NCBI RefSeq assembly: GCF_029626225.1
Contig: NZ_JARUBP010000001.1
Span: 4,154,001 to 4,218,000, forward strand
Reading direction: 5' to 3'
DNA: 64,000 bases
Origin: Asanoa sp. WMMD1127
Lineage (GTDB): Bacteria; Actinomycetota; Actinomycetes; Mycobacteriales; Micromonosporaceae
Both the position numbers and the translations under genes were made by a program. Each line of letters starts with the position of its first letter. Within the stretch, counting starts at the first letter, position 1. Shown here piece by piece: positions 10,955 through 29,473 of this stretch. Under the pieces are notes generated by a model. It saw only the letters and a list, made by a program, of their open reading frames with translations. It had not been told where the DNA came from and made no database searches.

Positions 10955-11080
10955 GCCACCCACGTTAGTGGCCCCTGAGTGGTCCGGCACGCTAAGTGCC
11001 AAATCGTCCGGCCAGCATACCTCCGATGTCTCGCCACGTGCGGTGACAGAACCATCGGGACAGACATCGAAGTTCGGGGA

Positions 11081-11109
11081 TTGACGCGCCGAGACATCCA
11101 ATGTTAACT
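11081..11109 (+). promoter_or_regulatory. Candidate promoter of the secreted-enzyme cluster
   Basis: TTGACG (11081-11086) is followed after 17 bp by TTAACT, a plausible but weak -35/-10 pair about 75 bp ahead of the GH95-like gene. A 9-bp inverted repeat, GATGTCTCG at 11025-11033 and CGAGACATC at 11090-11098, places one arm inside the spacer, so it could be an operator. This is assigned by eye only. Confidence 0.35.
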
Positions 11110-11185
11110 ACACGTCACAGACAAGGGTCGATGCTCATTTCGGCGGATGAGCACCGGACGAACGATCTAGAAGGGATCGTGTCGG

Positions 11186-14100
11186 ATGAAGGTGCGTTCG
11201 CCGATCGTCGCCAGCGTGCTGTTGCTTCTGGTGACCGGTGGGCTCGTCGCGACCGGGCCCGGCCCGGCGGCCGCGGCGCCCACGGATGCCGCCTACAACG
11301 CGGGCACCGGCGCTCTCAACGTCGACTACGCGAGTTACCTGTCGAAGCACGACATCGTCTACAACCGGCCGAACACCAACCCGCTGCACGGGCTGACGGT
11401 CGGCAACGGCCGCACGGGCGGCATGTTCTGGAACCAGAACGGGCTCACCGGCCAGGTGTCCGGTGTGGACCTGAGCCAACAGTCCACCTACGCGGCCGGC
11501 AACATCAACCTGTTCACCTCGCCGCAGATCGACAGCGGCTACAGCACCTTCCAGCAGCGGCTGTCGCTCTACGACGGCACCCTCACCACGAAGTACGACA
11601 ACAACCGCACGGTGACCGTGCTCGGCGCGCCCAACTCCGAGGTCATGGGCATCCACGTCGAGGACTCGCGGCCGGGCGTGTCCAGCATCGGGCTGGACCT
11701 GTCGCTGTGGGACATGAACACCGTGCAGAACATCGCCGACGTGCCCAACCTGACGACCTGGCGCACGGTCAGCACGTTCGCGGACTCGACCGGTGTGGGC
11801 CTCTCCCGCGGCCAGGCCGACCCCAACAACTTCGGCTACACGTTCGCGGCGACGGTCGAGGGCGCCAACTACACCGCGCAGACCGTCAACGGCACGCGGG
11901 TGCGGCTCAACATCACGCCCACGTCGAGCTACACGATCTGGTTCACCGCGGCCAGCCGCGTCAACTCACCGGGCCTCAACTCGGTGCAGCAGGCCCGCAA
12001 CCAGCTCGCCGCCGTGAAGTCCGCCGGCTACGCCAGCACGCTCAACGCGTACCGGAACTGGTGGCATGCCTTCTGGGCCAAGTCGTTCGTGCAGTACGGC
12101 GGCAGCGCCGACAACGACTACCTGGAGAACGCCTACTACCTGTTCACCTACATGATCGCGGCCGGCGGCTACGGCAACTACCCGCTGCACTTCATCAACG
12201 GCAACTTCCGGGCCACGCAGGACAACTCGAAGTGGTCCAACGGCTACTGGTACTGGAACCAGCGCGACGTCTACAACTCGTTCTACGGCTCGAACCATCC
12301 CGAGCTGATGAGGTCGTTCAACAACCTCTACGCCCGCAACTACAACGCGCTGAAGTCCTACACGCAGACGCGCTACGGCACCGACTCGCTCTGGGTGCCC
12401 GAGACGATGGGCTGGGACGGCAACGCCCGCGGCACCGTCAACAGCGACTACGTCAACGACATCTACTCGACGGGCACCGAGGCCGCCTACAACATGTACC
12501 TCTACTACCGGTACACCAACGACACGGCCTATCTGCGTGACGTCGCCTATCCGTTCATGCGCGAGTCGGTGCGGTTCTACCAGAACCGCTTGTCCCGCAA
12601 CGGCGCGCAATATTACATGGCCAGCTCCAACGCGCACGAGACCTACTGGGACGTGCGCAACGCGCTCACCGACCTGGCCGCGGTGCGGCTGCTGTTCCCG
12701 CTGACGATCCAGGTGTCCACCCAGCTCGGTGTCGACAGTGGACTGCGGGCCGGCTGGCAGGACGTCGTCAACAACTTGGCGCCCTACCAGATCTCCAACG
12801 GCGCGTACCTGCCGCACGACCCGCCGACGGCGCAGACCCGCAACGGCGAGAACGTGGCGTTGGAGCTGGTCTGGCCCTACGACCAGACGGGCATCGGCTA
12901 TCCCGACACGCAGACCGCCATCAACACCTGGAACGTGCGCCCGCACCCCTACGGCAACGTGTGGGCCAACGACCACGTGCACGCCGCGCGGCTCGGCCTC
13001 GGCCCGCAGACTCAGGCCGGCATGAAGACCATGCTGCAGAAGTACCAGAACTACCCCAACGGCATGACCAACAACACCAACGGTGTGTACGAGTACATCG
13101 GCATCCACCTCGCCGCGATGAACGAGGCGCTGATGCAGTCCTACAACGACAAGATCCGGGTGTTCCCCGCGATCCCGTCGGAGTCGAACTTCGTCGGCAA
13201 GTTCACGCTGCTGGCCAAGGACGGCTTCCTGGTCAGCTCCGAGCGGGAGGCGCAGGAGACGAAATATGTCGGTGTCCGCAGCCTGCACGGCAAGCAGGCG
13301 CGGGTGGTCAACCCGTGGGGCACGCAGCAGATCCGGGTCCGCCGCACGAGCGACAACGCCATCATCACCACCGTCTCGGCGGCCGAGGTGACGTGGGCGA
13401 CCGCGGCCAACACCAGCTACGTGGTCGAGCGGGTGAGCAAACCGCTGACGTCGTACGCGTCGACGACGCTGACCGGCACGGCCAACCAGGGCGCGAAGTC
13501 GCTGTCCGGCACGGCGTCGACGTTCGGCCTCGGCCCGGCCGGCCAGGGTGGCCTGGTCAACGACACCGACCTGACCTACGGCGCCAACTGGTACCACACC
13601 ACGGCCCGGGGCTACGGCGACTACAACGACGACACCCACCACAGCAACACCGTCGGCGCCGAGGCGTCCTACACGTTCACCGGCACGGGCGTGGAATACC
13701 TCTCGGAACGCTTCAGCGACATGGGCAACGTCGACGTCTACATCGACAACGTGTTCCAGGCCAACGTCAACCTCAACGTCAGCGGCGCCCGGCAGGCGCA
13801 GCAGGTGGTCTACAGCAGGACGGGGTTGGCCAACGGGCAGCACACGATCCGCATCGTCAACAAGACGACCTCGGTGGGCATGGTCGACGCCTTGCGGATC
13901 CTGACGGGCGGCACGACGCCGACCGGCGGCACGGCGCTGCGGGCCTCGGCCAACAACCTCTACGTGACCGCCGCGGGCACCACCCCACTGATCGCCAGCA
14001 GCGCCACGATCGGCGGCTCGCAACGCTTCGACGTGGTCGACCTCGGCGGCGGCAACGTGGCGTTGCGATCGCGGGCCAACAACCAGTTCGTGTGCGCGGA

Positions 14101-14311
14101 GGGCGCCGGCGCGCAGGCGCTGGTCGCCAACCGCGCGTCGGCGGGGTCCTGGGAGACGTTCGCCCGGGTCAACAACTCCGACGGCACGATCAGCCTGCGG
14201 GCCACCGTCAACAACAAGTACGTCGTCGCGGAGAACGGCGGTGCGGGCAACCTCATCGCCAACCGCGACGCGATCGGACCGTGGGAGAAGTTCACGCTGG
14301 TCGCGGGCTGA
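11186..14311 (+). CDS. Secreted GH95-like glycoside hydrolase (putative alpha-L-fucosidase) with fascin-type module
   Basis: A 1041-residue exported protein. Residues 1-31 are a Sec signal peptide ending in AAAAP. Residues 40-690 resemble the (alpha/alpha)6-barrel GH95 glycosidases (alpha-L-fucosidase/alpha-L-galactosidase): an N-terminal beta region with GLTVGNGRTGGMFW, then STGTEAAYNMYLYYRYTND, AYPFMRESVRFYQ and VFPAIP blocks. Residues about 757-905 look like a jelly-roll binding module. Residues 915-1041 form a fascin/beta-trefoil module (ALRSRANNQFVCAE, then WEKFTLV). The active-site residues differ enough from canonical GH95 that exact assignment needs alignment. The L-fuconate dehydratase gene 9 kb downstream supports a fucosyl substrate. 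It is the first gene of the secreted cluster. Confidence 0.68.
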   Translation: MKVRSPIVASVLLLLVTGGLVATGPGPAAAAPTDAAYNAGTGALNVDYASYLSKHDIVYNRPNTNPLHGLTVGNGRTGGMFWNQNGLTGQVSGVDLSQQSTYAAGNINLFTSPQIDSGYSTFQQRLSLYDGTLTTKYDNNRTVTVLGAPNSEVMGIHVEDSRPGVSSIGLDLSLWDMNTVQNIADVPNLTTWRTVSTFADSTGVGLSRGQADPNNFGYTFAATVEGANYTAQTVNGTRVRLNITPTSSYTIWFTAASRVNSPGLNSVQQARNQLAAVKSAGYASTLNAYRNWWHAFWAKSFVQYGGSADNDYLENAYYLFTYMIAAGGYGNYPLHFINGNFRATQDNSKWSNGYWYWNQRDVYNSFYGSNHPELMRSFNNLYARNYNALKSYTQTRYGTDSLWVPETMGWDGNARGTVNSDYVNDIYSTGTEAAYNMYLYYRYTNDTAYLRDVAYPFMRESVRFYQNRLSRNGAQYYMASSNAHETYWDVRNALTDLAAVRLLFPLTIQVSTQLGVDSGLRAGWQDVVNNLAPYQISNGAYLPHDPPTAQTRNGENVALELVWPYDQTGIGYPDTQTAINTWNVRPHPYGNVWANDHVHAARLGLGPQTQAGMKTMLQKYQNYPNGMTNNTNGVYEYIGIHLAAMNEALMQSYNDKIRVFPAIPSESNFVGKFTLLAKDGFLVSSEREAQETKYVGVRSLHGKQARVVNPWGTQQIRVRRTSDNAIITTVSAAEVTWATAANTSYVVERVSKPLTSYASTTLTGTANQGAKSLSGTASTFGLGPAGQGGLVNDTDLTYGANWYHTTARGYGDYNDDTHHSNTVGAEASYTFTGTGVEYLSERFSDMGNVDVYIDNVFQANVNLNVSGARQAQQVVYSRTGLANGQHTIRIVNKTTSVGMVDALRILTGGTTPTGGTALRASANNLYVTAAGTTPLIASSATIGGSQRFDVVDLGGGNVALRSRANNQFVCAEGAGAQALVANRASAGSWETFARVNNSDGTISLRATVNNKYVVAENGGAGNLIANRDAIGPWEKFTLVAG

Positions 14312-14323
14312 CCCCCGGTCAAC

Positions 14324-14353
14324 GGGGCCAGGGGAATGGCACACCCTGGCCCC
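14324..14353 (+). terminator. Intercistronic hairpin after the GH95-like gene
   Basis: A perfect 10-bp stem, GGGGCCAGGG paired with CCCTGGCCCC around a 10-nt loop, lies 12 bases after the stop codon. There is no U-tract, so it may be a GC-rich actinomycete terminator, an attenuator, or an mRNA 3'-end stabiliser. Confidence 0.6.
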
Positions 14354-14422
14354 GGGCTCCACCCAGTCGTCCAAGCCGAGCGCGGCGGCCCGGCTCCGAG
14401 TCACCCCCATCGGAGGAGCGCA

Positions 14423-15586: not shown

Positions 15587-15604
15587 CGAAATCCTCACGC
15601 GGTT

Positions 15605-15627
15605 CCGCACGGCCAGGTGCCGTGCGG
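15605..15627 (+). terminator. Intercistronic hairpin after the first ThuA gene
   Basis: A perfect 9-bp stem, CCGCACGGC paired with GCCGTGCGG around the loop CAGGT, lies 18 bp after the ThuA stop and 43 bp before the dehydrogenase start. No U-tract follows. It occupies the same relative position as the hairpins in the neighbouring gaps. Confidence 0.55.
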
Positions 15628-15670
15628 TCCGCCGCTGCTCCGCACCCCTACCCACCACAGGAGCATCCAC

Positions 15671-18544
15671 ATGCGACGTACGTCCCTGCGCCGCAGACCG
15701 CGCTTGCTGAGCGCGCTCGGCGCCGCCCTGCTCACGGCGGCCAGCCTCACGGCCCTGACCGTCACGCCCACCCCGGCCGCCGCCGCGCCGCCGGCCACCA
15801 ACCTGTTCGAGAAGGTCAAGCTCGACGGCGGCACCTCGATGGGCGAGCCCATCGAGCTCGCCGTCGCGCCCGACCACAAAGTCTTCTACATCAACCGCGG
15901 CACGTCGTCCGGCGGTGGCCAGGTCCGGCTCTACAACCCCGCCACGAAGGCCACCACGGTGGCGCTGACGCTGGCCCTGGACGCCCGGTTCGAGGACGGC
16001 CTCATCGGCATCACGCTCGACCCGGGCTTCGCCACGAACCGGTGGCTCTATCTCTTCTATTCGCCGGCCCAGAGCACGCTGGTCAACCGGATCTCCCGGT
16101 TCACCTTCAACGCCGGCACCAACGTGATCGACCCGGCGTCCGAAGACATGATCATCGAGTGGCCCACCGAGCGGCGGCTGTGCTGTCACAGCGCCGGCTC
16201 GATGACCTGGGACACGGCCGGCAACCTCTATTTCGCGGTCGGCGACAACACCAACTCCGGTGGCGACTCGGCCGGCATGGCGCCGATCGACGAGCGCACG
16301 TCGCGCGACGCGCAGTACGACGCGCAGCGCACGTCGGGCAACACCAACGACCTGCGCGGCAAGATCAACCGGATCAAGCCCCAGGCCAACGGCACCTACA
16401 CGATCCCGAGCGGCAACCTGTTCGCCCAGGGCACGGCGGGCACCAGGCCCGAGATCTACGTGATGGGCGTCCGCAACCCGTACCGCATCTGGGTCGACAA
16501 GAAGGCCAACAACACCCTCTACTGGGGCGAGGTCGGTCCGGACGCGGGCGCGACGATCGCCAACCGCGGCCCGGCCGCCTACGACGAGTTCAACCGGGCC
16601 ACCGCGCCCGGCAACTACGGCTGGCCCTACTGCGGCGGCCCCAACGTCGCCTACAACGACTGGGACTTCGCGGCCAACGCGCCGCGCGGCTGGTTCCCGT
16701 GCGGCGGCACGACCGGGCCGGTCAACAACTCGCCCCGCAACACCGGCCTGCAGCAGCTGCCACCGACCAAGCCCGCGCTCGTCTGGGAACAGCACGGCGG
16801 CAGCAAGGAGTGGCCCGCCCTGGACAACCCCGGCGGTTGCGGCTCGCCGAACCACACCGAGGTCTACCACTACGACCCCAACCTGGTCTCGGACGTGAAG
16901 TGGCCGCAGTACTACGACAACAAGTGGCTCATCTCCGAGTACTGCCGCAACTGGATCAAGGAGGTCCAGTTCAACAACGGCAACCCGTCGACCGGTACGC
17001 CGACGGTGATCGAGCCCGTGCTGGCCGGGATGCAGCTCGTGCACCCGATCGACATGGAGTTCGGCCCGGACGGCTCGCTCTACCTGCTCGAGTACGGCAA
17101 CGGCTACTTCTCGGGCGACGTGGCGGCCGGGCTCTACAAGATCAACTATGTGGCCGGCGGGCGGGCCCCGATCGCGGTGGCCTCGGCCAACCGGGACAAC
17201 GGCCTGGCCCCGCTGCAGGTCACCTTCTCCAGCGCGGGCAGCACCGACCCCGACGGCAACCCGCTGACCTACCAGTGGGACTTCGACAACAACGGGACCG
17301 TCGACTCCACGGCGGCCAACCCGACCTACACCTACACGACGGTCGGCGACAAGCGGGCGCGGCTGACCGTCAACGACGGCACCGGGCGCAGCGGCACGAC
17401 GCTGCTGCCGATCGTGGTCGGCAACAACCGGCCCACGGTCACGCTGAACGGCGTACCGGCCGGCGGCATGATCTCGTGGGACGAGAACGTCACGAGCACC
17501 GCGACGGCGACCGACCCGCAGGACGGCACGATCCCGTGCGCCAACGTGGTCATCCGGGCCGCGCTGGGTCACCAGGAGCACGCGCACGAGGAGGGCCAGG
17601 GCACCGGTTGCGGGTTCACCGTCAACACCGGTCCCGTGCACGCCGGCCCCGACTCGACGCTGTTCTTCGTGCTGCGATCCAGCTACACCGACCGGGGCGC
17701 GACCGGCACCGTCCCGCTGACCGGGGAGAAGGAGATCACTCTCTGGCCCAAGCAGTGGCAGGCGGAGCACTACGTGACCCTCAACGGCCCGCAGGTGATC
17801 AACGCGGCCGGCGCCGAGGGCGGCAAGCGGCTCGGTGACATCCAGAACGGTGAGTACGTGCGGCACCACGGTGTCAGCCTGAAGGGCATCAACCAGCTCC
17901 GGGCCCGGGTCTCCTCGGGTGGCGCCGGCGGCACGATCTCGTTCCGCTACGACTCGACCACCGGCCCCGAGGTCGCCCGGGTCGCGGTGCCGAGCACCGG
18001 CAGCTGGGACACCTACACCGACATCACCGTGCCGGTGAACAAGCCCGACGACAACACGCACGACCTCTACATCGTGTTCACCGGCGGCAGCGGCGCGTTC
18101 CTCGACCTCGACAGCTACACGTTCGTGGGTCCGGGCGTCTCGACACCGGGCGGCGGCGGCGGCCCGCGGACCGGCGCCGTCAAGGCGCTCGGCAAGTGCG
18201 CCGACGTCAACGCCAGCGGCACGGCCGACGGCACGAAGATCCAGATCTGGGACTGCAACGGCGCGCCGAACCAGACCTGGACGGTCGGCACCGACGGGAC
18301 GATCCGCTCGCTCGGCAAGTGCATGGACGTCCAGTCCAGCGGCACGGCGAACGGCACGAAGATCCACCTCTGGACCTGCAACGGCACCGGCGCCCAGCAG
18401 TGGGTCACCGGCGTCAGCGGCAGCCTGCGCAACCCGCAGGCCAACAAGTGCCTCGACATCCCGGGCTCCAACACCACCAACGGAACCCAGCTGCAGATCT
18501 ACGACTGCAACGGCACCGGCGCCCAGAACTGGACGCTGCCCTAA
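15671..18544 (+). CDS. Secreted PQQ-dependent sugar dehydrogenase with PKD, CBM6-like and ricin-B modules
   Basis: A 957-residue exported enzyme. AGGAG precedes the ATG. Residues 1-39 are a signal peptide. Residues 42-490 form a six-bladed GSDH (glucose/sorbosone dehydrogenase, AA12-like) propeller: FEDGLIGITLDPGFATN, then CCHSAGSMTWDTAGNLYFAVGD with the His that corresponds to the catalytic base of soluble glucose dehydrogenase, then VMGVRNPYRI, whose GxRNP arginine contacts PQQ in that enzyme. Residues 497-585 are a PKD domain. About 590-690 is an Ig/cadherin-like domain, 695-825 is CBM6-like, and 835-957 is a ricin-B trefoil with three QxW repeats (QTW, QQW, QNW). It should oxidise a sugar outside the cell. 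No PQQ synthesis genes are in the window. Confidence 0.87.
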   Translation: MRRTSLRRRPRLLSALGAALLTAASLTALTVTPTPAAAAPPATNLFEKVKLDGGTSMGEPIELAVAPDHKVFYINRGTSSGGGQVRLYNPATKATTVALTLALDARFEDGLIGITLDPGFATNRWLYLFYSPAQSTLVNRISRFTFNAGTNVIDPASEDMIIEWPTERRLCCHSAGSMTWDTAGNLYFAVGDNTNSGGDSAGMAPIDERTSRDAQYDAQRTSGNTNDLRGKINRIKPQANGTYTIPSGNLFAQGTAGTRPEIYVMGVRNPYRIWVDKKANNTLYWGEVGPDAGATIANRGPAAYDEFNRATAPGNYGWPYCGGPNVAYNDWDFAANAPRGWFPCGGTTGPVNNSPRNTGLQQLPPTKPALVWEQHGGSKEWPALDNPGGCGSPNHTEVYHYDPNLVSDVKWPQYYDNKWLISEYCRNWIKEVQFNNGNPSTGTPTVIEPVLAGMQLVHPIDMEFGPDGSLYLLEYGNGYFSGDVAAGLYKINYVAGGRAPIAVASANRDNGLAPLQVTFSSAGSTDPDGNPLTYQWDFDNNGTVDSTAANPTYTYTTVGDKRARLTVNDGTGRSGTTLLPIVVGNNRPTVTLNGVPAGGMISWDENVTSTATATDPQDGTIPCANVVIRAALGHQEHAHEEGQGTGCGFTVNTGPVHAGPDSTLFFVLRSSYTDRGATGTVPLTGEKEITLWPKQWQAEHYVTLNGPQVINAAGAEGGKRLGDIQNGEYVRHHGVSLKGINQLRARVSSGGAGGTISFRYDSTTGPEVARVAVPSTGSWDTYTDITVPVNKPDDNTHDLYIVFTGGSGAFLDLDSYTFVGPGVSTPGGGGGPRTGAVKALGKCADVNASGTADGTKIQIWDCNGAPNQTWTVGTDGTIRSLGKCMDVQSSGTANGTKIHLWTCNGTGAQQWVTGVSGSLRNPQANKCLDIPGSNTTNGTQLQIYDCNGTGAQNWTLP

Positions 18545-18562
18545 CGGCCGGAGCGCAAAGCC

Positions 18563-18600
18563 GCGTGGGGCCCGGTCGCGCCGACGTCCGGGCCCCACGC
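18563..18600 (+). terminator. Intercistronic hairpin after the first dehydrogenase gene
   Basis: A perfect 13-bp stem, GCGTGGGGCCCGG paired with CCGGGCCCCACGC around a 12-nt loop, lies 18 bp after the stop. It is the strongest of the three hairpins in this cluster and may end or stabilise the upstream transcript. Confidence 0.65.
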
Positions 18601-18620
18601 CCGAATCCTCAGGAGCTCCC

Positions 18621-20738: not shown

Positions 20739-20749
20739 AAGGACAAGGT

Positions 20750-23578
20750 ATGCGCCCATCCCCTCGGCGCTGGTCACGGCTGCTCGCCGTCGGCCTGCTC
20801 GGCGCCGCCAGCTCCACGCTGGCGGTGACCACCGCCGCGGCGCCCGCCGCCGCGGCGCCCGTCCCGGCCTCCGACTACCAGGCCGTCCAACTGGCGGTCG
20901 GCTCGGCCGAGATCGGCGAGGCGATGTCCCTCGCCGTGCTGCCGGACCGCACGGTCATCCACACCGCCCGCAACGGCACGGTGCGGGTGACCGACCCCAG
21001 CGGCAACACCAAGGTGGCCGGCACCATCCCCGTCTACACCCACGACGAGGAGGGCCTGCAGGGCGTCGCGGTCGACCCGGGATTCGCCTCGAACCGCCAC
21101 GTCTGGCTCTACTACTCGCCACCGCTGTCGACGCCGGGCGGTGACGCGCCGACGACCGGCACCGCGGCGGACTTCAACGCGTGGAAGGGTCAGCTCAACC
21201 TGTCGCGGTTCACCCTCAACGCCGACAACACGCTCAACATGGGCAGCCAGGTCGTCGTGCTGACCGTGGCCAACGACCGCGGCCAGTGCTGCCACGTCGG
21301 TGGCGACATCGACTTCGACGCGGCCGGCAACCTCTACCTGACCACCGGCGACGACACGAACCCGTTCGAGAGCAACGCGTACACCCCGATCGACGAGCGG
21401 ACCAACCGGAACCCGCAGTTCGACGCGCAGCGCTCCTCGGCCAACACCAACGACCTGCGCGGCAAGGTCCTGCGGATCAAGCCGCAGGCCAACGGGACCT
21501 ACACGATCCCGGCCGGCAACATGTTCGCGCCGGGGACCGCGAACACCCGGCCGGAGATCTACGCGATGGGCTTCCGGAACCCGTTCCGGATGAGCGTCGA
21601 CAAGCCGACCGGCATCGTCTACCTCGGTGACTACGGGCCCGACGCGGGCGCGGCCGACCCCAACCGCGGTCCCGGCGGCCAGGTCGAGTTCAACCGGATC
21701 ACCGGGCCGGGCTTCTACGGCTGGCCCTACTGCACCGGCAACAACTCGACGACCGAGACCTACAACGAGTACACGTTCCCGACCGGTCCGTCGCAGGCCA
21801 AGTACAACTGCGCCGGCGGGCCGACCAACAACTCGTTCCGCAACACCGGCCAGCAGACGCTGCCGGCGGCCAAGCCGGCCTGGATCCGGTACGGCTTCGA
21901 CTCGACGCCGCCGGAGTTCGGTGGCGGATCCGAGTCGCCGATGGGCGGCCCGGTCTACCGCTACAACGCATCCCTCAACTCGGCAGTGAAGTTCCCGCAG
22001 TCGCTCGACGGGCGCTACTTCGCAGGCGAGTACGGCCGTCAGTGGATCAAGGCGATCGCCGTGAACGCGAACGGCGGCTACGGCGAGATCTCGGACTTCC
22101 CGTGGGACGGCACGCAGGTCATGGACATGGCCTTCGGGCCGGACGGCGCCCTCTACGTGCTCGACTACGGCACGGGCTCCAACAACCAGGCGCTCTATCG
22201 CATCGAGTACATCGGCGGCGGCAACCGCAGCCCGGTGGCGGTCGCGTCGGCCAACCGGACCTCCGGCCCGGCCCCGCTGAGCATCACGTTCTCGTCGGCG
22301 GGCTCGTCGGACCCGGAGGGCGGGGCGCTCTCCTATCTCTGGACGTTCGGCGACGGCACCACGTCGACGGCGGCGAACCCGACGAAGACCTACAACACCA
22401 ACGGCACCTACACGCCGACGTTGCGGGTCACCGACCCGACCGGACTGTCCGGCACGGCCAGCCTCGTCGTCACGGTCGGCAACTCGGCGCCGACGGTCAA
22501 CCTCAGCGCCCCGGCCGACGGGACGCTGTTCAACTTCGGCGACACCATCCCGTACACCGTGAGCGTCTCGGATCCTGAGGACGGCACCATCAACTGCTCG
22601 CGGGTGTCGGTGACCTATTTCCTCGGCCACGACAACCACTCGCACCAGATCACGTCGAAGACGGGCTGCTCCGGCACGCTCACCGTGCCCACCGACGGCG
22701 AGCACGACGCGGCGGCCAACATCTTCGGCATCTTCGTGGCCTCCTACACCGACAACGGTGGGCTGACCACGACCAACCAGAAGGTCCTGCAGCCGCGGCA
22801 CCGCCAGGGTGAGCACTTCGCGGCCCAGTCCGGCGGGGTGCAGGTCGCCAACCACGGCCCGGCCGAGGGTGGCGCGACGGCCGGCTACATCGACAACAAC
22901 GACTGGATCTCGTTCCGGCCCTACAACCTGTCCAACGCCAGCAGCATCACCGCGCGCGTCGCGTCGGGCACGGTCGGCGGCACCATCGAGGTGCGCAGCG
23001 GCTCGCAGACCGGCCCGCTGCACGGCACGCTGACGGTCAGCCCGACGGGCGGTTGGGAGACGTACGCCAACGTCACCGCCAACCTCACCGGCGTGCCGTC
23101 CGGCCCGACGCAGCTGTTCTTCGTCTTCAAGGGCGGCGCGGGCAACCTGTTCGACCTGGACGCGTTCACCATCAACTCCGGTGGCACGTCGACCGGTGGC
23201 TCGACGCTCAGGGCGCTCGTCAACAACCAGTTCGTCAGCGCCGCCAACAGCACGACGCCGCTGATCGCCAACAAGGCGACGGCGGGCGCCACCGAGCGGT
23301 TCGACGTGGTCGAACTCGGCGGTGGCAACGTCGCGCTGCGCTCACGGGCCAACAACATGTACGTGTGCGCGGAGAACGCCGGCGCGAACCCGCTCGTCGC
23401 CAACCGGGCGGCGGTCGGGCCGTGGGAGACGTTCGCCCTCGTCCGCAACGCCGACGGCAGTGAGAGCCTGCGGGCGACCGTCAACAACATGTACGTGGTC
23501 GCGGAGAACAGCGGCACCCAGCCGTTGGTCGCCAACCGCGCGGCGATCGGCGCGTGGGAGAAGTTCGACCTGGTCTGA
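20750..23578 (+). CDS. Secreted PQQ-dependent sugar dehydrogenase with PKD, CBM6-like and fascin-type modules
   Basis: A 942-residue exported enzyme, paralogous to the one at 15671. It begins 11 bp after the ThuA-DUF1080 stop, with AAAGGA six bases before the ATG; a GTG at 20735 is less likely. Residues 1-36 are a signal peptide. The GSDH propeller (40-485) keeps CCHVGGDIDFDAAGNLYLTTGD and AMGFRNPFRM. A PKD domain (490-575), an Ig-like domain, a CBM6-like module (683-812) and a fascin-type trefoil (816-942) follow. Relative to the first copy, the ricin module is replaced by a fascin module. It oxidises an unknown sugar extracellularly and is coupled to the ThuA-DUF1080 gene. A strong terminator follows. 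Confidence 0.88.
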   Translation: MRPSPRRWSRLLAVGLLGAASSTLAVTTAAAPAAAAPVPASDYQAVQLAVGSAEIGEAMSLAVLPDRTVIHTARNGTVRVTDPSGNTKVAGTIPVYTHDEEGLQGVAVDPGFASNRHVWLYYSPPLSTPGGDAPTTGTAADFNAWKGQLNLSRFTLNADNTLNMGSQVVVLTVANDRGQCCHVGGDIDFDAAGNLYLTTGDDTNPFESNAYTPIDERTNRNPQFDAQRSSANTNDLRGKVLRIKPQANGTYTIPAGNMFAPGTANTRPEIYAMGFRNPFRMSVDKPTGIVYLGDYGPDAGAADPNRGPGGQVEFNRITGPGFYGWPYCTGNNSTTETYNEYTFPTGPSQAKYNCAGGPTNNSFRNTGQQTLPAAKPAWIRYGFDSTPPEFGGGSESPMGGPVYRYNASLNSAVKFPQSLDGRYFAGEYGRQWIKAIAVNANGGYGEISDFPWDGTQVMDMAFGPDGALYVLDYGTGSNNQALYRIEYIGGGNRSPVAVASANRTSGPAPLSITFSSAGSSDPEGGALSYLWTFGDGTTSTAANPTKTYNTNGTYTPTLRVTDPTGLSGTASLVVTVGNSAPTVNLSAPADGTLFNFGDTIPYTVSVSDPEDGTINCSRVSVTYFLGHDNHSHQITSKTGCSGTLTVPTDGEHDAAANIFGIFVASYTDNGGLTTTNQKVLQPRHRQGEHFAAQSGGVQVANHGPAEGGATAGYIDNNDWISFRPYNLSNASSITARVASGTVGGTIEVRSGSQTGPLHGTLTVSPTGGWETYANVTANLTGVPSGPTQLFFVFKGGAGNLFDLDAFTINSGGTSTGGSTLRALVNNQFVSAANSTTPLIANKATAGATERFDVVELGGGNVALRSRANNMYVCAENAGANPLVANRAAVGPWETFALVRNADGSESLRATVNNMYVVAENSGTQPLVANRAAIGAWEKFDLV

Positions 23579-23596
23579 TCCCGGCTAGTCATTGGA

Positions 23597-23624
23597 CGAA
23601 TCGCCCCGGCAACGGGGCGATTCG
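23597..23624 (+). terminator. Rho-independent-type terminator after the secreted cluster
   Basis: A perfect 12-bp stem (CGAATCGCCCCG paired with CGGGGCGATTCG) closed by a GCAA tetraloop and followed by TTCGTTCG lies 18 bp after the second dehydrogenase gene. It separates the secreted cluster from the intracellular catabolic operon. Confidence 0.8.
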
Positions 23625-23645
23625 TTCGTCGATCCTCGCAAACTC

Positions 23646-23679
23646 TTGTCACACATCCGATCACCTGGTAAACATCGGA
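23646..23679 (+). promoter_or_regulatory. Candidate promoter and operator of the fuconate dehydratase/ABC operon
   Basis: TTGTCA (23646-23651) is followed after 17 bp by TAAACA, a plausible -35/-10 pair ending 32 bp before the dehydratase start. The inverted repeat TCCGAT-N12-ATCGGA (23656-23661 and 23674-23679) spans the spacer and -10, where a repressor such as the FadR-type protein at 28693 would block transcription. Assigned by eye. Confidence 0.45.
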
Positions 23680-23705
23680 CCTATGAATGCGCGTGAGGAT
23701 CATCG

Positions 23706-25013
23706 ATGACCGCCCGCTTCGTGTCGCTGGACACCTACGACGTGCGGTTCCCGACCTCGCGCGAGTTGGACGGCTCCGACGCGATGAACCCGGACCCGGA
23801 CTACTCGGCGGCCTACGTGGTGCTGCGGACCGACGAGGTCGATGGGCACGAAGGCCATGGGTTCGCCTTCACGATCGGCCGGGGCAACGAGGTGCAGACG
23901 GCGGCGATCGCCGCGCTGCGGCCCTACCTCGCCGGCCGGCTCGTGAAGAGCGTCCTGGACGACCTGGGCGCGTTCTGGCGCGAGCTGGTGCACGACTCGC
24001 AGCTGCGCTGGCTGGGCCCTGAGAAGGGCGTCATGCACATGGCCATCTCCGCCGTGGTCAACGCCCTCTGGGACCTCAAGGCCAAGCAGGCCGGTCTGCC
24101 GCTCTGGCAGCTGCTGGCCTCGATGCCGCCGGAGGAGCTCGTCTCGCTGGTCGACTTCCGCTACCTGACCGACGCGCTCACCCCGCAGGAGGCGCTCGCG
24201 CTGCTCCAGCCGGGCGCCGTCGGCCGCGAGGAGCGCGTCGCCGAGCTCCTCGCCAACGGCTACCCGGCCTACACGACGTCGCCCGGCTGGCTCGGCTACG
24301 ACGACGAGAAGCTGCGCCGGCTGTGCCGCGAGGCGCTCGACGCCGGCTTCCGGCAGATCAAGCTCAAGGTGGGCGCCGACCTCGACGACGACCTGCGCCG
24401 GCTGCGGATCGCCCGCGAGGTGTGCGGGCCGGACATCCGGATCGCCGTCGACGCCAACCAGCGCTGGGACGTCCAGGACGCCATCGACTGGGTCGGCGCG
24501 CTCGCGCCGTACGACGTGTGGTGGGTCGAGGAGCCGACCAGCCCCGACGACGTGGTCGGCCACGCCGCCATCGCCCGCGGCATCGCGCCCGTGCCGGTGG
24601 CCACCGGCGAGCACGTGCAGAACCGTGTGGTCTTCAAGCAGCTGCTCCAGCTGGGCGCGGTGTCCTATGTGCAGCTCGACGCCGCGCGGGTCGCCGGCGT
24701 CAACGAGAACGTCGCGATCCTGTTGCTGGCGGCCAAGTTCGGCGTGCCGGTCTGCCCGCACGCCGGCGGTGTCGGCCTCTGCGAGCTGGTGCAGCACCTC
24801 TCGCTGTTCGACTACGTCGCGGTGTCCCGGTCGATGGACAACCGGGTCATCGAGTACGTCGACCATCTCCACGAGCACTTCCGCGATCCCGTGCAGATCC
24901 GCGCCGGTCGTTACCTGGCACCCCAGGCGCCCGGCTTCAGCTCGACCATGCGTCCCGAAAGCCGGGCCCGGTTCGCCTTCCCCGACGGACCGGCCTGGTC
25001 CCGCACCGTCTGA
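23706..25013 (+). CDS. L-fuconate dehydratase (enolase superfamily)
   Basis: A 435-residue enzyme that dehydrates L-fuconate to 2-keto-3-deoxy-L-fuconate in the non-phosphorylating fucose pathway. It matches the FucD/ENOSF1 family end to end: [20 protein letters not shown] at the start, [20 protein letters not shown] near 100, [16 protein letters not shown] near 190, [12 protein letters not shown] (catalytic lysine of the KxK motif) near 220, [10 protein letters not shown] and [10 protein letters not shown] (metal Asp and Glu), ATGEHVQNR (metal Glu), and [16 protein letters not shown] (catalytic His) near 350. The family also accepts L-galactonate and related acids. It starts an operon with the sugar ABC genes and the FadR regulator. 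Confidence 0.93.
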
Positions 25014-25052
25014 CCCACCCCTACCCATCCCTGCCCACCACAGAGGACTGCG

Positions 25053-26120
25053 ATGACTCTTCACAGACGCGCCGTCGTCAGCGTGGCGGTCGTCGCCGCG
25101 TTGGCCGCGGTGACCGCCGGTTGCAACTCGTCCGACTCGGGCTCCAGCGGAGGCAGCGGCACCGGCAGTGGCGGCACCGCCAACCCGCCGATCGCCGTCG
25201 ACCTGCCCCGGGCGGACAGCGACTTCTGGAACTCGTACGCGAAGTACATCCCGCAGTACGCGCAGGAGAGCGGCATCAACCTGATGACGCCGACCAACTC
25301 GCAGAACGACATCGCCAAGCTGGTCGCCAACGCGCAGGCGCTGACCGCCCAGGGCGCCAAGGCGATCGTGATGGCGCCCCAGGACACCGGCGCCATCGCC
25401 AGCACGCTCACCCAGCTCGAGGGCAAGAAGATCCCTGTCGTCTCCGTCGACACCCGGCCCGACAAGGGCAAGGTCTTCATGGTGGTGCGGGCCGACAACC
25501 GCGCCTACGGCCAGAAGGCGTGCGAGTTCCTCGACGAGAAGCTGGGCGGCAAGGGCAAGGTCATCGAGTTCCAGGGCTCGCTGTCGTCCGTCAACGGCCG
25601 CGACCGGTCCGAGGCCTTCGCCGAGTGCATGAAGACGAAGTTCCCCGACATCACCATCTTCGAGGAGCCGACCGAGTGGGAGGGCGCCAAGGCGTCCGCC
25701 GCGCTGCAGACCCGGCTCGCCCAGCACCCCGACATCAAGGGCATCTACATGCAGGCCGGCGGCGTGTTCCTGGCGCCCACCCTGCAGCTGCTGAAGTCCA
25801 AGAACCTGCTGGTGCCGCCGACCGACCCCAAGCACATCTTCATCGTCTCCAACGACGGCATCCCGCAGGAGTTCGAGGCGATCCGCAAGGGCGAGATCGA
25901 TGCCACCGTCTCGCAGCCGGCGGACCTCTACGCCAAGTACGCGCTGTTCTACGCCAAGGCCGCGGTCGAGGGAAAGACGTTCACCCCTGGACCGACCGAC
26001 CATGACAGCACCATCATCGACGTCGGCAACGGCGTGCTCGAAGACCAGCTGCCGGCGCCGCTCGTGACGAAGGACAACGTCGACGACGCGTCGTTGTGGG
26101 GCAACCAGATCGGGAAGTGA
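25053..26120 (+). CDS. Sugar ABC transporter substrate-binding lipoprotein (RbsB-like)
   Basis: A 355-residue periplasmic-binding-protein-like lipoprotein. The lipobox is AVTAGC with the acylated Cys near residue 24, followed by a Ser/Gly-rich linker. The mature domain is the two-lobed type I fold of ribose/galactose binders: AVDLPRADSDFWNSY, ALTAQGAKAIVMAPQD, VVSVDTRPDKG and HIFIVSNDGIPQEFEAIRKG. It overlaps the ATPase start by one base. In this context it probably binds L-fuconate, L-fucose or an oligosaccharide released by the secreted enzymes (inference from neighbours only). Confidence 0.9.
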   Translation: MTLHRRAVVSVAVVAALAAVTAGCNSSDSGSSGGSGTGSGGTANPPIAVDLPRADSDFWNSYAKYIPQYAQESGINLMTPTNSQNDIAKLVANAQALTAQGAKAIVMAPQDTGAIASTLTQLEGKKIPVVSVDTRPDKGKVFMVVRADNRAYGQKACEFLDEKLGGKGKVIEFQGSLSSVNGRDRSEAFAECMKTKFPDITIFEEPTEWEGAKASAALQTRLAQHPDIKGIYMQAGGVFLAPTLQLLKSKNLLVPPTDPKHIFIVSNDGIPQEFEAIRKGEIDATVSQPADLYAKYALFYAKAAVEGKTFTPGPTDHDSTIIDVGNGVLEDQLPAPLVTKDNVDDASLWGNQIGK

Positions 26121-27658
26121 TGACCGCACTGCTGTCCGACGCGGCCGGGAGTGGGGCTGCCGCCCCGCCCCCGGCCGTCTCGGCCGAAGAGGTGACCAAG
26201 CGCTTCGGCGCGACGACCGCGCTGGCCGGGGTGAGCGTGGCGATCCGGCCCGGCGAGACCCACGCGCTCGTGGGCCGCAACGGCGCCGGCAAGTCCACCC
26301 TGGTCTCGGTGCTCACCGGCCTGCAACGGGCCGACGAGGGCCGGGTGTCGTTCGGCGGCGAGCCGGCGCCGGCACCGTCCGATCGCGACGGTTGGCGCCG
26401 CCGGGTGGCGTGCGTCTACCAACGGTCGACCATCATCCCGACGCTGTCGGTGGCGGAGAACCTGTTCCTCAACCGGCAGGCGTCGCACGGCCCGATCCGG
26501 TGGGGCGCGTTGCGGCGGCGGGCCGGCGCCCTGCTGGACGAGTACGGCGTCGCCGTCGACCCGGCGGCGCTCGCCGGCGACCTCAACGTCGAGCAGCGGC
26601 AGCTGGTCGAGATCGCCCGCGCGCTCTCGATCGGCACCCGGTTCATCATCCTCGACGAGCCGACCGCCCGCCTCGACGCGACCGCGATCGAGCGGCTGTT
26701 CGAGCGGATGCGGTCGCTGTCGGCGTCCGGCGTGACGATGCTGTTCATCTCGCACCACCTCCGCGAGGTCTACGAGGTCTGCGACACCGTGACCGTGCTC
26801 CGCGACGCCCGCTGGGTGCTCACCGAGCCCGTGTCGGCGGTGGGCCACGACGCGCTGGTGGCGGCGATGACGGGGGAGGCGGTCGGGCTGACCGACGTCG
26901 CGCCCCGCACCGTGCCCGACTCGGCGCCGGTGCTGTCGCTGCGTGACCTGACCTTGGCGGGGGCTTACGACGGGATCGACCTCGAGCTGCGGGCCGGCGA
27001 GATCGTCGGTGTCACCGGCTCGGGCAGCAGCGGCAAGGTGTCGCTCGCCGAGACCGTCGGCGGGCTGCGGCGGGCCGACCGCGGGACGGTGTCGGTCGGA
27101 TCTTCGCCGGTAGGCGCCGGAGTTCCGGCCGCTCTCAAGGCCGGGATCGGGTTGGTGCCGGAGGATAGGCACCGCGAGGGGCTGGTGCCCCTGTTGTCGG
27201 TGGCCGAGAACGCTACCCTGCCGATCGCCGACCGGCTCGGGCCCGCGGGCGTCGTCGTGCCGCGGCGGCGGTCTTCGGTGGCGGCGGACATGGTGCGGCG
27301 CTACGACATCCGCACCGAGAGCCCGCTGGCGCCCGTGTCCAGCCTCTCCGGCGGCAACGCGCAGAAGGTCGTGCTGGCCCGCGCGCTGTCGACCGACCCG
27401 CGGGTGCTGGTGCTGATCAACCCGACCGCCGGCGTCGACGTGCGGTCCAAGGAGTCGCTGCTCGGTGCGGTGCGGGCGGCGGCCGACGGCGGGACCGGCG
27501 TGCTGATGGTCTCCGACGAGCTCGACGACCTGCGCCACTGCGACCGGGTGCTGGTCATGTTCCACGGCCGCGTGACGGCCGAACTCGCCCACGGCTGGGA
27601 GGACGCGCAGGTGGTCGCGGTCGTCGAAGGTGTTTCTGCAGAAGGAGCGGAGTCATGA
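26120..27658 (+). CDS. Sugar ABC transporter ATPase (RbsA-like, two nucleotide-binding domains)
   Basis: A 512-residue cytosolic ATPase with tandem ABC domains. The first (20-250) has the Walker A GRNGAGKST, Walker B FIILDEPTA and H-loop LFISHHL. The second (270-500) has a degenerate Walker A (TGSGSSGKVS), the signature LSGGNAQK and Walker B LVLINPTAGVDV, with Asn replacing the usual Asp/Glu position. Asymmetric sites of this kind are normal in RbsA/MglA-type proteins. The ATG overlaps the preceding TGA, and the gene overlaps the permease at ATGA, so all three importer parts are translationally coupled. It energises uptake of the sugar or sugar acid. Confidence 0.92.
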   Translation: MTALLSDAAGSGAAAPPPAVSAEEVTKRFGATTALAGVSVAIRPGETHALVGRNGAGKSTLVSVLTGLQRADEGRVSFGGEPAPAPSDRDGWRRRVACVYQRSTIIPTLSVAENLFLNRQASHGPIRWGALRRRAGALLDEYGVAVDPAALAGDLNVEQRQLVEIARALSIGTRFIILDEPTARLDATAIERLFERMRSLSASGVTMLFISHHLREVYEVCDTVTVLRDARWVLTEPVSAVGHDALVAAMTGEAVGLTDVAPRTVPDSAPVLSLRDLTLAGAYDGIDLELRAGEIVGVTGSGSSGKVSLAETVGGLRRADRGTVSVGSSPVGAGVPAALKAGIGLVPEDRHREGLVPLLSVAENATLPIADRLGPAGVVVPRRRSSVAADMVRRYDIRTESPLAPVSSLSGGNAQKVVLARALSTDPRVLVLINPTAGVDVRSKESLLGAVRAAADGGTGVLMVSDELDDLRHCDRVLVMFHGRVTAELAHGWEDAQVVAVVEGVSAEGAES

Positions 27659-28680
27659 GCGGCACTGCCACCGCGCCACCGGCTGTCGACGTGCCTGGCG
27701 CGCGCCGGCGGTTGCGGGGGCCCGCGCTGGCGCGGATGCGGGACCTGGCGCTCGTACCCGCGATCATCGTCCTGGTTCTCGTGGGTGCGCTCATCGACCC
27801 GGTGTTCCTGAGCAGCGCCAACATCGTCAACGTGCTGCAGCAGCAGACCGAGCTGTCGTTGCTGGTGCTGGCCGAGGCGATCATCCTGATCGGCGGGCGG
27901 TTCGACCTGTCGCTGGAGTCCACTGTGGGCCTCGCGCCGGCGCTGGCCGTCGCGCTGGTCATCCCGGCGGCCAGCAACGGCCTGGGCACCGAGTGGTCCA
28001 CCGCGCTGGCCATCCCGATCTGCCTGCTGGTCGGCGTCCTCATCGGAGCGTTCAACGGGATGCTGATCCTGCGGTTCGGGCTGTCGGCGTTCATCGTGAC
28101 GCTCGGCATGCTGATCGTGCTGCGTGGTCTGCAGATCGGCATCACCGGTGGGCAGAACCTGTTCGAGCTGCCGTCGTCGGTCCTCTACCTCGGCAATGCG
28201 GTCTGGCTCGGCCTGCCAGCCTCGATCTGGATCTGCGCGGTGCTGTTCGCGATCGGCATCGCGGTGCTCGGCTGGTTCCGCCACGGGCGCGCGGTGTACG
28301 CCATCGGTGGCAACCGTGACGCGGCGCGCGCGGCCGGCATCCGGGCCGACCGGGTGATCTTCGTGGTCTTCGTCGTCGGTGGCCTCCTGGCGGCGCTGGC
28401 CGGTCTGCTGATGACCGGTCGACTCGGCTCGGTCGCGTCGGCGCAGGGCTCCGGCATGATCTTCACGGTGTTCGCCGCGGCCGTCATCGGCGGGGTGAGC
28501 ATGGAGGGCGGCAAGGGCACGCTGTTCGGCGCGCTCTGTGGCGTGATCGTGCTCGGCCTGATCAACAACATCCTCACGCTCGCCGGCGTCTCGGCACAGT
28601 GGATCCAGGCCATCTACGGCCTGATCATCCTGGTGGCGCTGATGCTGGCCCGGGTGACGACGGGCAAGGCCCAGGACTGA
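27655..28680 (+). CDS. Sugar ABC transporter permease (RbsC-like)
   Basis: A 341-residue membrane protein with eight to ten hydrophobic helices of the BPD_transp_2 family. Family marks include GGRFDLSLESTVGLA near residue 80 and AIGGNRDAARAAGIRADRV near 220, which is the cytosolic coupling loop that docks on the ATPase. The sequence GGVSMEGGKGTLFGALCGV near 285 is also typical. It forms a homodimeric channel with the RbsA-like ATPase. Its ATG overlaps the ATPase stop and it ends 12 bp before the FadR-type regulator, so the operon continues. Confidence 0.92.
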   Translation: MSGTATAPPAVDVPGARRRLRGPALARMRDLALVPAIIVLVLVGALIDPVFLSSANIVNVLQQQTELSLLVLAEAIILIGGRFDLSLESTVGLAPALAVALVIPAASNGLGTEWSTALAIPICLLVGVLIGAFNGMLILRFGLSAFIVTLGMLIVLRGLQIGITGGQNLFELPSSVLYLGNAVWLGLPASIWICAVLFAIGIAVLGWFRHGRAVYAIGGNRDAARAAGIRADRVIFVVFVVGGLLAALAGLLMTGRLGSVASAQGSGMIFTVFAAAVIGGVSMEGGKGTLFGALCGVIVLGLINNILTLAGVSAQWIQAIYGLIILVALMLARVTTGKAQD

Positions 28681-28692
28681 GGTGGCGACGCC

Positions 28693-29364
28693 GTGGCGTT
28701 GACCGACGCAGCGATCGACAAGATCAAGGAGATGATCGTCTCCGGGGCCCTCGGCCCCGGGGACCGCCTCCCCAAGGAGGCCGACCTCGCCGAGCGGCTG
28801 GGGCTGTCCCGCAACTCGTTGCGCGAGGCGGTCAAGGCGCTGTCCATCATCAAGGTGCTCGACGTGCGGCAGGGCGACGGCACCTACGTCACCAGCCTCT
28901 CGCCGGACCTCCTGCTGGAGTCGCTCAGCTTCGTGGTCGACTTCCACCGCGACGACACCGTGCTCCAGTTCCTCGAGGTGCGGCGGATCCTGGAGCCCGC
29001 CGCGACGGCGCTCGCGTCGCGGCGGATGAGCGACCCCGAGATCGCCAAGCTGCAGCGGGTGCTCGACGAGCTCGGCCCGTCGCCGTCGGTCGAGGCGCTG
29101 GTCGCCAACGACCTCGAGTTCCACCGGGCGATCGCGGCCGGCTCGGGCAACGCGGCGCTCTGCTCGCTGATCGACGGGCTGTCCGGGCCGACCACCCGGG
29201 CCCGGATCTGGCGCGGGCTGACCCAGGAGGGCGCGGTCGAGCGGACCCGCGAGCAGCACCAGGCGATCGTCGACGCGATCACAGCGCGGGAGCCGGACCT
29301 GGCCCGGTCGTGGGCGACGGTACACATCGCGGGCGTCGAGGAGTGGCTGCGGCAAGCGCTCTGA
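28693..29364 (+). CDS. FadR-subfamily GntR transcriptional regulator
   Basis: A 223-residue regulator. Residues 5-70 are the GntR winged helix (IKEMIVSGALGPGDRLPKE, then LAERLGLSRNSLREAVKALS, then the wing VRQGDGTYV). Residues 85-220 are an all-helical FCD effector domain with ligand/metal-site residues in FLEVRRILEP, DLEFHRAIAAGSGN and REQHQAIVDAI. FCD regulators typically sense sugar acids or other carboxylates, so 2-keto-3-deoxy-L-fuconate or L-fuconate is a reasonable effector (inference). The start is GTG, 12 bp after the permease. It is the last gene of the fuconate operon and probably autoregulates it. Confidence 0.9.
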   Translation: MALTDAAIDKIKEMIVSGALGPGDRLPKEADLAERLGLSRNSLREAVKALSIIKVLDVRQGDGTYVTSLSPDLLLESLSFVVDFHRDDTVLQFLEVRRILEPAATALASRRMSDPEIAKLQRVLDELGPSPSVEALVANDLEFHRAIAAGSGNAALCSLIDGLSGPTTRARIWRGLTQEGAVERTREQHQAIVDAITAREPDLARSWATVHIAGVEEWLRQAL

Positions 29365-29418
29365 TACGTCGCACGACGTACTGTCGGATACTCCCTGCCG
29401 AGTACGAAACCGTCGTAC
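29365..29418. promoter_or_regulatory. Two inverted repeats ahead of the membrane protein/multicopper oxidase pair
   Basis: Directly after the regulator stop, TACGTCG-CA-CGACGTA (29365-29380) is a perfect palindrome with 7-bp arms. GTACGA-N5-TCGTAC (29402-29418) follows 21 bp later. They share the TACG/CGTA core and precede the next gene by 56 bp, so they may be operators for that unit or part of a terminator region. Confidence 0.45.
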
Positions 29419-29473
29419 CTCTTTCATAGAGTCATCGCGTCCCACACAGACTTACTTCGGACGGGGTTGTGCG

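What the first reader, a model, noticed from the sequence alone, without database searches (positions are those of the whole stretch)
11186..29364. Candidate extracellular L-fucose oxidation system
Seen: a secreted GH95-like hydrolase, two secreted PQQ-type dehydrogenases with CBM/PKD modules, then an L-fuconate dehydratase, a ribose-type importer and an FCD-type regulator. No cytosolic fucose dehydrogenase or fuconolactonase gene is in this cluster. Established: L-fuconate dehydratase acts on the acid, and fungal AA12 pyranose dehydrogenase (a PQQ relative) oxidises L-fucose. Inference: fucose is freed and oxidised outside the cell and imported as fuconate or its lactone, so the sugar-dehydrogenation step lies outside the membrane. 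That routing has not, to my knowledge, been described in an actinomycete.
Basis: partly seen in the sequence, partly recalled or inferred. Interest (0 to 1): 0.75.

Follow-up and report, generated by a model that had tools for sequence, protein, structure and literature searches.

The report
Secreted arm of a fucose regulon
A soil actinomycete puts a secreted glycan-degrading gene set and an L-fucose uptake and breakdown pathway under what looks like one switch; the sugar is most likely oxidised inside the cell, by an enzyme encoded elsewhere on the chromosome, and not outside as first proposed.

Summary
The genes are there. The L-fuconate dehydratase is clear (best PDB match 1yey, residues 5-432).

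"No cytosolic fucose dehydrogenase" holds for this cluster only. At C1 ~1.252-1.256 Mb the genome has an SDR, a galactose/fucose-type aldo/keto reductase (AKR), a fuconolactonase-like protein and a second FCD regulator, 79% identical to the window's. One of the genome's two exact copies of a probable FCD operator, ACATC[C/G]GATGT, lies upstream. Near-copies precede the window's secreted operon and dehydratase; the operator also precedes the GH95-like gene in Actinoplanes and Herbidospora.

The three relatives whose secreted-set cluster lacks the AKR carry it elsewhere; Solirubrobacter and Prauserella keep both together. Binding proteins beside the secreted set are not one clade apart from those beside the AKR.

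Best reading: secreted enzymes free fucose, which is imported and oxidised inside. The role of the PQQ-type proteins is open; they resemble bacterial sGDH more than AA12. Extracellular oxidation as a side route is not excluded.

The parts
11019..11029 (.). probable FCD operator, ACCTCCGATGT (1 mismatch to ACATCSGATGT); lies in the 5' end of the longest reading of the minus-strand ORF 9638-11101
   Evidence: same sequence upstream of the gene in Asanoa iriomotensis (L185:4532), reverse complement in Herbidospora (L037:2822)
11094..11104 (.). probable FCD operator, ACATCCAATGT (1 mismatch)
   Evidence: identical site upstream of the GH95-like gene in Herbidospora (L037:2963) and A. iriomotensis (L185:4607)
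11186..14311 (+). secreted GH95-like hydrolase (distant, DUF5703-type) with C-terminal DUF7910 / CBM92-like trefoil; probably frees L-fucose or a like sugar
   Evidence: families; near fucose-type genes in other genomes
15617..18544 (+). secreted GSDH (sGDH-family) protein with PKD, CBM6 and ricin-B domains
20735..23578 (+). secreted GSDH (sGDH-fold) protein with PKD, CBM6 and DUF7910 domains
23596..23625 (+). strong inverted repeat after the secreted genes (possible terminator, no T run)
   Evidence: not among the terminator-like sites
23653..23663 (.). weak FCD operator match, ACATCCGATCA (2 mismatches)
   Evidence: kept in A. iriomotensis (L014:9948)
23672..23682 (.). weak FCD operator match, ACATCGGACCT (2 mismatches)
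   Evidence: kept in A. iriomotensis (L014:9967)
23706..25013 (+). L-fuconate dehydratase (enolase superfamily)
   Evidence: best PDB match 1yey, 660.8 bits, residues 5-432
25053..26120 (+). ribose-type (CUT2) binding lipoprotein, probably for L-fucose
26096..27658 (+). CUT2 importer ATPase
27655..28680 (+). CUT2 importer permease
28693..29364 (+). FCD/GntR regulator, 79% identical to the one beside the genome's AKR operon

Best explanation
This is the secreted and uptake half of a split L-fucose regulon. A GH95-like hydrolase, held on glycans by CBM modules, frees L-fucose (or another sugar of the L-galacto series) from a polysaccharide. ThuA, GSDH and 3-keto-hydrolase proteins act beside it on the glycan. 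The CUT2 importer takes up the free sugar. A cytosolic aldo/keto reductase, encoded with a lactonase and an SDR about 2.9 Mb away, oxidises it to lactone and acid. The window's dehydratase then makes 2-keto-3-deoxy-fuconate, which the SDR and an FAH hydrolase finish. Two similar FCD repressors acting at ACATCSGATGT sites tie the loci together. Shown: genes, families, neighbourhoods, operator-like sites. Inferred: activities, sugar identity, repressor binding, operon structure.
For: AKR + lactonase + SDR + FCD operon in the same genome; AKR's nearest solved relatives are L-galactose dehydrogenases, the lactonase's is 4dlf, titled amidohydrolase (a fuconolactonase by my recall). Operator: 36 exact and 101 with at most 1 mismatch in 80 loci against 0-1 and 17-18 in three simulations; 2 exact in 7.97 Mb of own genome, one upstream of the AKR operon; two 1-mismatch sites before the secreted operon (Poisson p 5e-7 at the genome's own density; motif chosen after looking at these promoters); the GH95-like promoter is marked too in A. 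iriomotensis, Actinoplanes and Herbidospora. AKR in 75 of 80 dehydratase loci; the 3 without it that carry the secreted set have it elsewhere (the other 2, L076 and L082, were not checked). In Actinoplanes, as here, the two loci complement each other: dehydratase, lactonase and importer in one, FAH, SDR and AKR in the other. GH95-like gene near fucose-type genes in 5 of 6 other genomes, four of them without window-like GSDH/ThuA matches in the stretch fetched. Herbidospora's set-linked binding protein groups with AKR-linked ones.
Against: No activity is tested. The window's dehydratase promoter has only 2-mismatch sites, and the genome as a whole is not enriched in 1-mismatch sites (39 sites in 7.97 Mb, fewer than the simulated density would give). 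The AKR-operon site lies ~900 bp before the SDR, just inside an unassigned ORF. The Actinoplanes AKR locus has no site with at most 1 mismatch and a different regulator (26-29% identical). AKR is absent from 3 of 5 set-linked loci. In A. iriomotensis and Herbidospora the set-linked dehydratase is a second copy beside a fuller cluster. The three Micromonosporaceae set-linked binding proteins do form a clade of their own (100/99). Two partial GH95-like paralogues looked at (L174, L175) have no fucose-enzyme neighbours, and four genomes with partial matches were not looked at. The GH95 base aspartate is not found at its usual motif.
Confidence: 0.72

Rival explanations
1. One reading: one or both GSDH proteins oxidise free L-fucose outside the cell, and lactone or acid is imported straight to the dehydratase.
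For: AKR missing from 3 of 5 secreted-set loci vs 2 of 75 others; Actinoplanes cluster keeps a lactonase but no AKR; extra dehydratase and importer beside the set in A. iriomotensis and Herbidospora; sGDH fold with His and Arg-Asn kept in 12 of 12 aligned domains.
Against: Close AKR in all six relatives examined, and downstream of an exact operator in the own genome; AKR and secreted GSDH together in Solirubrobacter and Prauserella; importer not set apart; pqqC not found in own genome; no cytochrome partner noticed (not searched for); residue matching sGDH Arg408 is not Arg in 12 of 12; the GSDHs carry glycan-binding modules.
Confidence: 0.12
2. The ThuA/GSDH/3-keto-hydrolase proteins are a general oxidative deglycosylation kit (3-keto-glycoside chemistry on the polymer), recruited here to help expose fucose.
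For: 10 of the 18 GSDH genes listed for the genome are ThuA-linked, 7 in one open frame (lists may stop at 20 rows); PF06439 domain at 131 bits; PF06439 proteins are known or proposed 3-ketoglycoside hydrolases (PMC9007349, passages); paralogous pair at C1 ~7.762-7.767 Mb with no fucose-pathway match in the 14 kb fetched.
Against: GSDH relatives are known to oxidise C1, not C3; a LacABC-type dehydrogenase was not looked for; this could be true together with the best explanation.
Confidence: 0.35
3. The true substrate is L-galactose or D-arabinose, not L-fucose.
For: AKR's nearest solved relatives are L-galactose dehydrogenases; L-fuconate dehydratase is recalled to accept L-galactonate and D-arabinonate.
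Against: Closest dehydratases with solved structure are named L-fuconate dehydratases; lactonase nearest 4dlf.
Confidence: 0.15
4. The secreted set lies beside the dehydratase by chance.
For: Only 5 of 80 dehydratase loci have any of it.
Against: Conserved order and operator-marked promoter in several genera; one minus-strand run lactonase - FCD - GH95-like - GSDH in Solirubrobacter.
Confidence: 0.04

Closest known systems
Oxidative (non-phosphorylated) L-fucose pathway of Xanthomonas (FucD 1yey; Yew et al. 2006, recalled, cited within PMC5507952)
   Same: Dehydratase closely similar; dehydrogenase, lactonase, SDR and FAH hydrolase candidates present in the genome
   Different: Split over distant loci, CUT2 importer, FCD regulators, secreted glycan-active set attached
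Actinobacterial fuconate-dehydratase clusters (80 loci)
   Same: Dehydratase; in many, CUT2-type importer, FCD regulator and operator-like sites
   Different: 75 of 80 hold the AKR in the locus; only 5 of 80 hold members of the secreted set
Bacterial soluble PQQ glucose/aldose dehydrogenases (1c9u, 2ism, 3das)
   Same: Fold; His and Arg-Asn positions
   Different: sGDH Arg408 position not Arg; ThuA partners; CBM/PKD modules; no pqqC found in own genome
Fungal AA12 pyranose dehydrogenases (6i1q, 6jt5)
   Same: Same broad propeller fold, Foldseek E about 1e-8
   Different: Far weaker than sGDH (E 4e-21); not among 14 profile hits
GH95 alpha-L-fucosidases and DUF5703 proteins (9hmb, 9hyq, 4ufc, 8zbv)
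   Same: Catalytic-domain homology, a Glu aligned with GH95
   Different: Profile scores DUF5703 proteins above GH95; GH95 Asp motif not found

Membership tests
L-fuconate dehydratase | Full-length similarity to characterised enzyme | tested here: met
   1yey, 660.8 bits, query 5-432 of 435
L-fuconate dehydratase | Turnover of L-fuconate | not testable with these tools
   needs enzyme assay
GH95 | Score over Pfam catalytic-domain cut-off | tested here: met
   PF22124 40.7 vs 27; 9 of 9 aligned members match at E<=0.001
GH95 | Acid/base residues of alpha-1,2-fucosidases (Glu; Asp in a DGNFG motif; residues recalled) | tested here: inconclusive
   Glu aligned, Asp motif not found; structure model too poor to use (pLDDT 41.8)
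PQQ sugar dehydrogenase (sGDH/Asd) | Fold and catalytic His, Arg-Asn | tested here: met
   1c9u E 4e-21 for the GSDH2 model; H143, R237, N238 invariant in 12 of 12
PQQ sugar dehydrogenase (sGDH/Asd) | PQQ-carboxylate arginines (sGDH Arg406/Arg408, recalled numbering) | tested here: not met
   Arg408 position Met/Ile in 12 of 12; Arg406 position Arg in 3 of 12, neither of the window's two (read by eye). Docking puts other residues around PQQ in an AA12 enzyme, so binding is not excluded
AA12 | Sequence or fold closer to AA12 than to bacterial GSDH | tested here: not met
3-keto-disaccharide hydrolase (PF06439) | Score over Pfam cut-off | tested here: met
   131.4 vs 26.8 bits
3-keto-disaccharide hydrolase (PF06439) | Hydrolysis of a 3-ketoglycoside | not testable with these tools
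   needs enzyme assay
Cytosolic oxidative fucose pathway | Candidates for dehydrogenase, lactonase, dehydratase, SDR, FAH hydrolase all in the genome | tested here: met

The most novel reading that the evidence does not exclude
A second, extracellular branch: the CBM-anchored GSDH proteins oxidise fucose (free or as the reducing end of released glycan) outside the cell, a dedicated importer and extra dehydratase copy take the acid or lactone, and the cytosolic AKR serves free fucose in parallel.
Probability: 0.12. Interest if true: 0.72.

Novelty: new variant of a known kind. Interest (0 to 1): 0.46.

Why it matters
It joins a poorly understood secreted ThuA/GSDH/3-keto-hydrolase set, whose ThuA-GSDH core occurs at least ten times in this genome, to one named sugar through a simple testable operator. 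That gives a substrate to try for proteins that lack one, and it points to a distant GH95-like hydrolase as a candidate fucose-releasing enzyme.

Tried and rejected
Structure of the GH95-like domain: model too poor (pLDDT 41.8), not searched. Dyad counting for the operator was swamped by G+C; reading promoters by eye found it, so the motif was chosen on some of the loci and promoters later counted. The 36 own-genome sites with at most 1 mismatch outside the window were looked at with fetched flanks: many lie inside predicted ORFs; apart from the AKR-operon site the rest precede genes with no evident fucose link, judged by eye (one lies at the start of another sugar-binding lipoprotein gene, L130, not followed). 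The exact site at C1:544808 lies inside a regulator ORF. pqqC first gave no control signal; over 197 genomes it rang in 4, 2 above cut-off, own genome negative; other pqq genes were not searched. Promoter/terminator scan of 10900-29600: no more than in shuffles. Literature: no paper in the open-access library with ThuA + PQQ + sugar dehydrogenase, ThuA + sorbosone dehydrogenase + secreted or DUF5703 + glycoside hydrolase; six with L-fucose + PQQ + pyranose dehydrogenase, by their titles on fungal enzymes or biosensors; four with L-fuconate dehydratase + Streptomyces, listing only. Most subscription journals are not in that library.

Papers: PMC6881810, PMC9007349, PMC5507952, PMC10481521, PMC11039641 seen as passages; others as search listings only.

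Full report
WHAT IS THERE. Five secreted proteins run 11186-23578: GH95-like, ThuA, GSDH, ThuA + 3-keto-disaccharide hydrolase, GSDH. The two ThuA proteins and the 3-keto-hydrolase domain were missed. Then come an L-fuconate dehydratase (best PDB match 1yey, 660.8 bits), a CUT2 importer and an FCD regulator. The DUF7910 tails of three secreted proteins match 7zoh/7zoi, which PMC11039641 gives as CBM92 modules; its abstract says CBM92 proteins prefer beta-1,6-glucans (passages).

THE MISSING STEPS ARE ELSEWHERE. By similarity to single representatives, 75 of 80 hold an aldo/keto reductase (AKR) within the fetched flanks, and 62 of 80 an amidohydrolase; SDR, FAH hydrolase, importer and FCD genes are frequent. 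The window lacks these four enzymes, but its genome (7.97 Mb, completeness 100) has AKR and lactonase side by side at C1:1252609-1254395 (57% and 46% identical to the queries), with an SDR and a second FCD gene. The two FCD proteins are 79% identical. The best FAH hydrolase match is at C1:296070 (61%). The AKR's nearest solved relatives are L-galactose dehydrogenases; L-fucose is 6-deoxy-L-galactose.

ONE SWITCH. Promoters of related clusters share ACATC[C/G]GATGT. In the 80 loci there are 36 exact sites and 101 with at most one mismatch; three first-order simulations gave 0-1 and 17-18. The motif was noticed in some of these loci, so this is partly circular. Of 15 loci with an FCD gene at least 65% identical, 13 have a site with at most one mismatch in the cluster (9 exact); of the other 65, 31 do (19 exact). 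The own genome has 2 exact sites: one inside an unrelated regulator ORF, one upstream of the AKR operon, about 900 bp before the SDR and just inside an unassigned ORF between. A. iriomotensis has an exact site at the start of its homologue of that ORF and two one-mismatch sites before the dehydratase that follows. Upstream of the window's GH95-like gene are two one-mismatch sites 75 bp apart; chance for two in 200 bp at the genome's own density is 5e-7. Before the window's dehydratase are two two-mismatch sites (p 8e-5). The genome as a whole is not enriched in one-mismatch sites. The same two sites precede the GH95-like gene in A. iriomotensis and Herbidospora; Actinoplanes sp. NBRC 103695 has an exact site about 100 bp before the predicted start, overlapping the end of the ORF before it. 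In Solirubrobacter the lactonase, FCD, GH95-like (26% identical) and GSDH genes run in one direction, divergent from the dehydratase, with a one-mismatch site between. Against this, the Actinoplanes AKR locus has no site with at most one mismatch and its regulator is only 26-29% identical.

SECRETED SET AND FUCOSE GENES. Members of the set lie near the dehydratase in 5 of 80 loci: Asanoa, Actinoplanes, Herbidospora, Solirubrobacter, Prauserella (in Prauserella no GH95-like match and GSDH only 35%). From the other side, the GH95-like protein was found in 11 of 296 genomes of the class, own included. Of the six other genomes with a near full-length match, five have fucose-type genes within about 10 kb (two with the dehydratase, three with a lactonase of 38-39% identity and importer genes); the sixth lies at a contig start. 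One of the five (G275) is very like L037 and may be the same species. The four other than G275 show no match to window GSDH or ThuA. Two partial paralogues (L174 own, L175 G275) have no fucose-enzyme match nearby, and four genomes with partial matches were not looked at.

AGAINST MY READING. In the five set-linked loci the AKR is missing from three; in the other 75 from two (Fisher p 0.0012). The three are not independent. A. iriomotensis and Herbidospora have a separate cluster with dehydratase, SDR, AKR and lactonase and with operator sites, so their set-linked dehydratase is extra. This is what a parallel extracellular route would look like, and is why I keep it at 0.12. In favour of uptake of the free sugar, the three AKR-less genomes have a close AKR elsewhere (54-85% identical); in Actinoplanes the two loci complement each other as in the window's genome. 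In a tree of 43 binding proteins (42 of the 80 loci, at least 50% identical over 280 residues or more, plus the window's) Herbidospora's set-linked protein groups with AKR-linked Nonomuraea ones (96/98), while the three Micromonosporaceae ones form their own clade (100/99). F58, W59, D133, R183, D268 and Q288, which I place in the pocket by recall of ribose-binding protein, are kept in at least 95% of the rows. Sugar-acid importers predicted in PMC5507952 were TRAP or TTT types, fucose importers ABC (passages); that is one set of genomes.

THE GSDH PROTEINS. The GSDH2 domain model (pLDDT 70.9, pTM 0.80) is closest to bacterial sGDH 1c9u (E 4e-21), then aldose dehydrogenases and, at rank 9, the hedgehog-interacting protein, to my knowledge no enzyme; AA12 appears from rank 37 at about 1e-8. 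The catalytic His and Arg-Asn positions are kept in 12 of 12 aligned domains; the position of sGDH Arg408 (recalled numbering) is Met or Ile in 12 of 12. pqqC was not found in this genome, so PQQ, if used, would probably be scavenged. Of 18 GSDH genes listed for the genome, 10 lie with ThuA, seven of them in one open frame. That pattern, the glycan-binding modules and the 3-keto-hydrolase partner suggest work on glycans generally. The chemistry is not established.

LOCAL SPLIT. In A. iriomotensis the second locus includes a dehydratase 81% identical to the window's; in the window's genome that copy is absent from the matching operon, so the window's dehydratase probably serves the cytosolic route. 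A further, 60% identical, dehydratase sits at C1:3925332 beside a gene that looks like uronate isomerase and near pectate-lyase-like genes (names by eye).

VERDICT. A real, probably co-regulated fucose acquisition system with an unusual secreted set. The specific claim that fucose is oxidised outside because no cytosolic dehydrogenase exists is not supported; outside oxidation in parallel remains possible.

Noticed in passing
G000:C1:3925332-3926606 (L010); L104:8415-11104: Second fuconate-dehydratase homologue (60%), open over 428 aa in L104, beside a gene that reads like uronate isomerase and near pectate-lyase-like genes; one search counted one TGA in its aligned stretch, probably the end stop.
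   Followed up: partly
G000:C1: Seven ThuA-GSDH proteins in single open frames of 1146-1963 aa: a fusion family of unknown substrate.
   Followed up: partly
window 54553-55194: A further ThuA gene (251 aa frame), not near the cluster.
   Followed up: no
window 29923-31494: Multicopper oxidase after the FCD gene, also in A. iriomotensis (80%); a possible electron sink, not linked here.
   Followed up: no
G000:C1 ~7762-7767 kb (L144): Paralogue of the ThuA/3-keto-hydrolase and GSDH2 pair (65% and 72%) with a gene that reads like a sugar-phosphate isomerase/epimerase about 3 kb away.
   Followed up: partly
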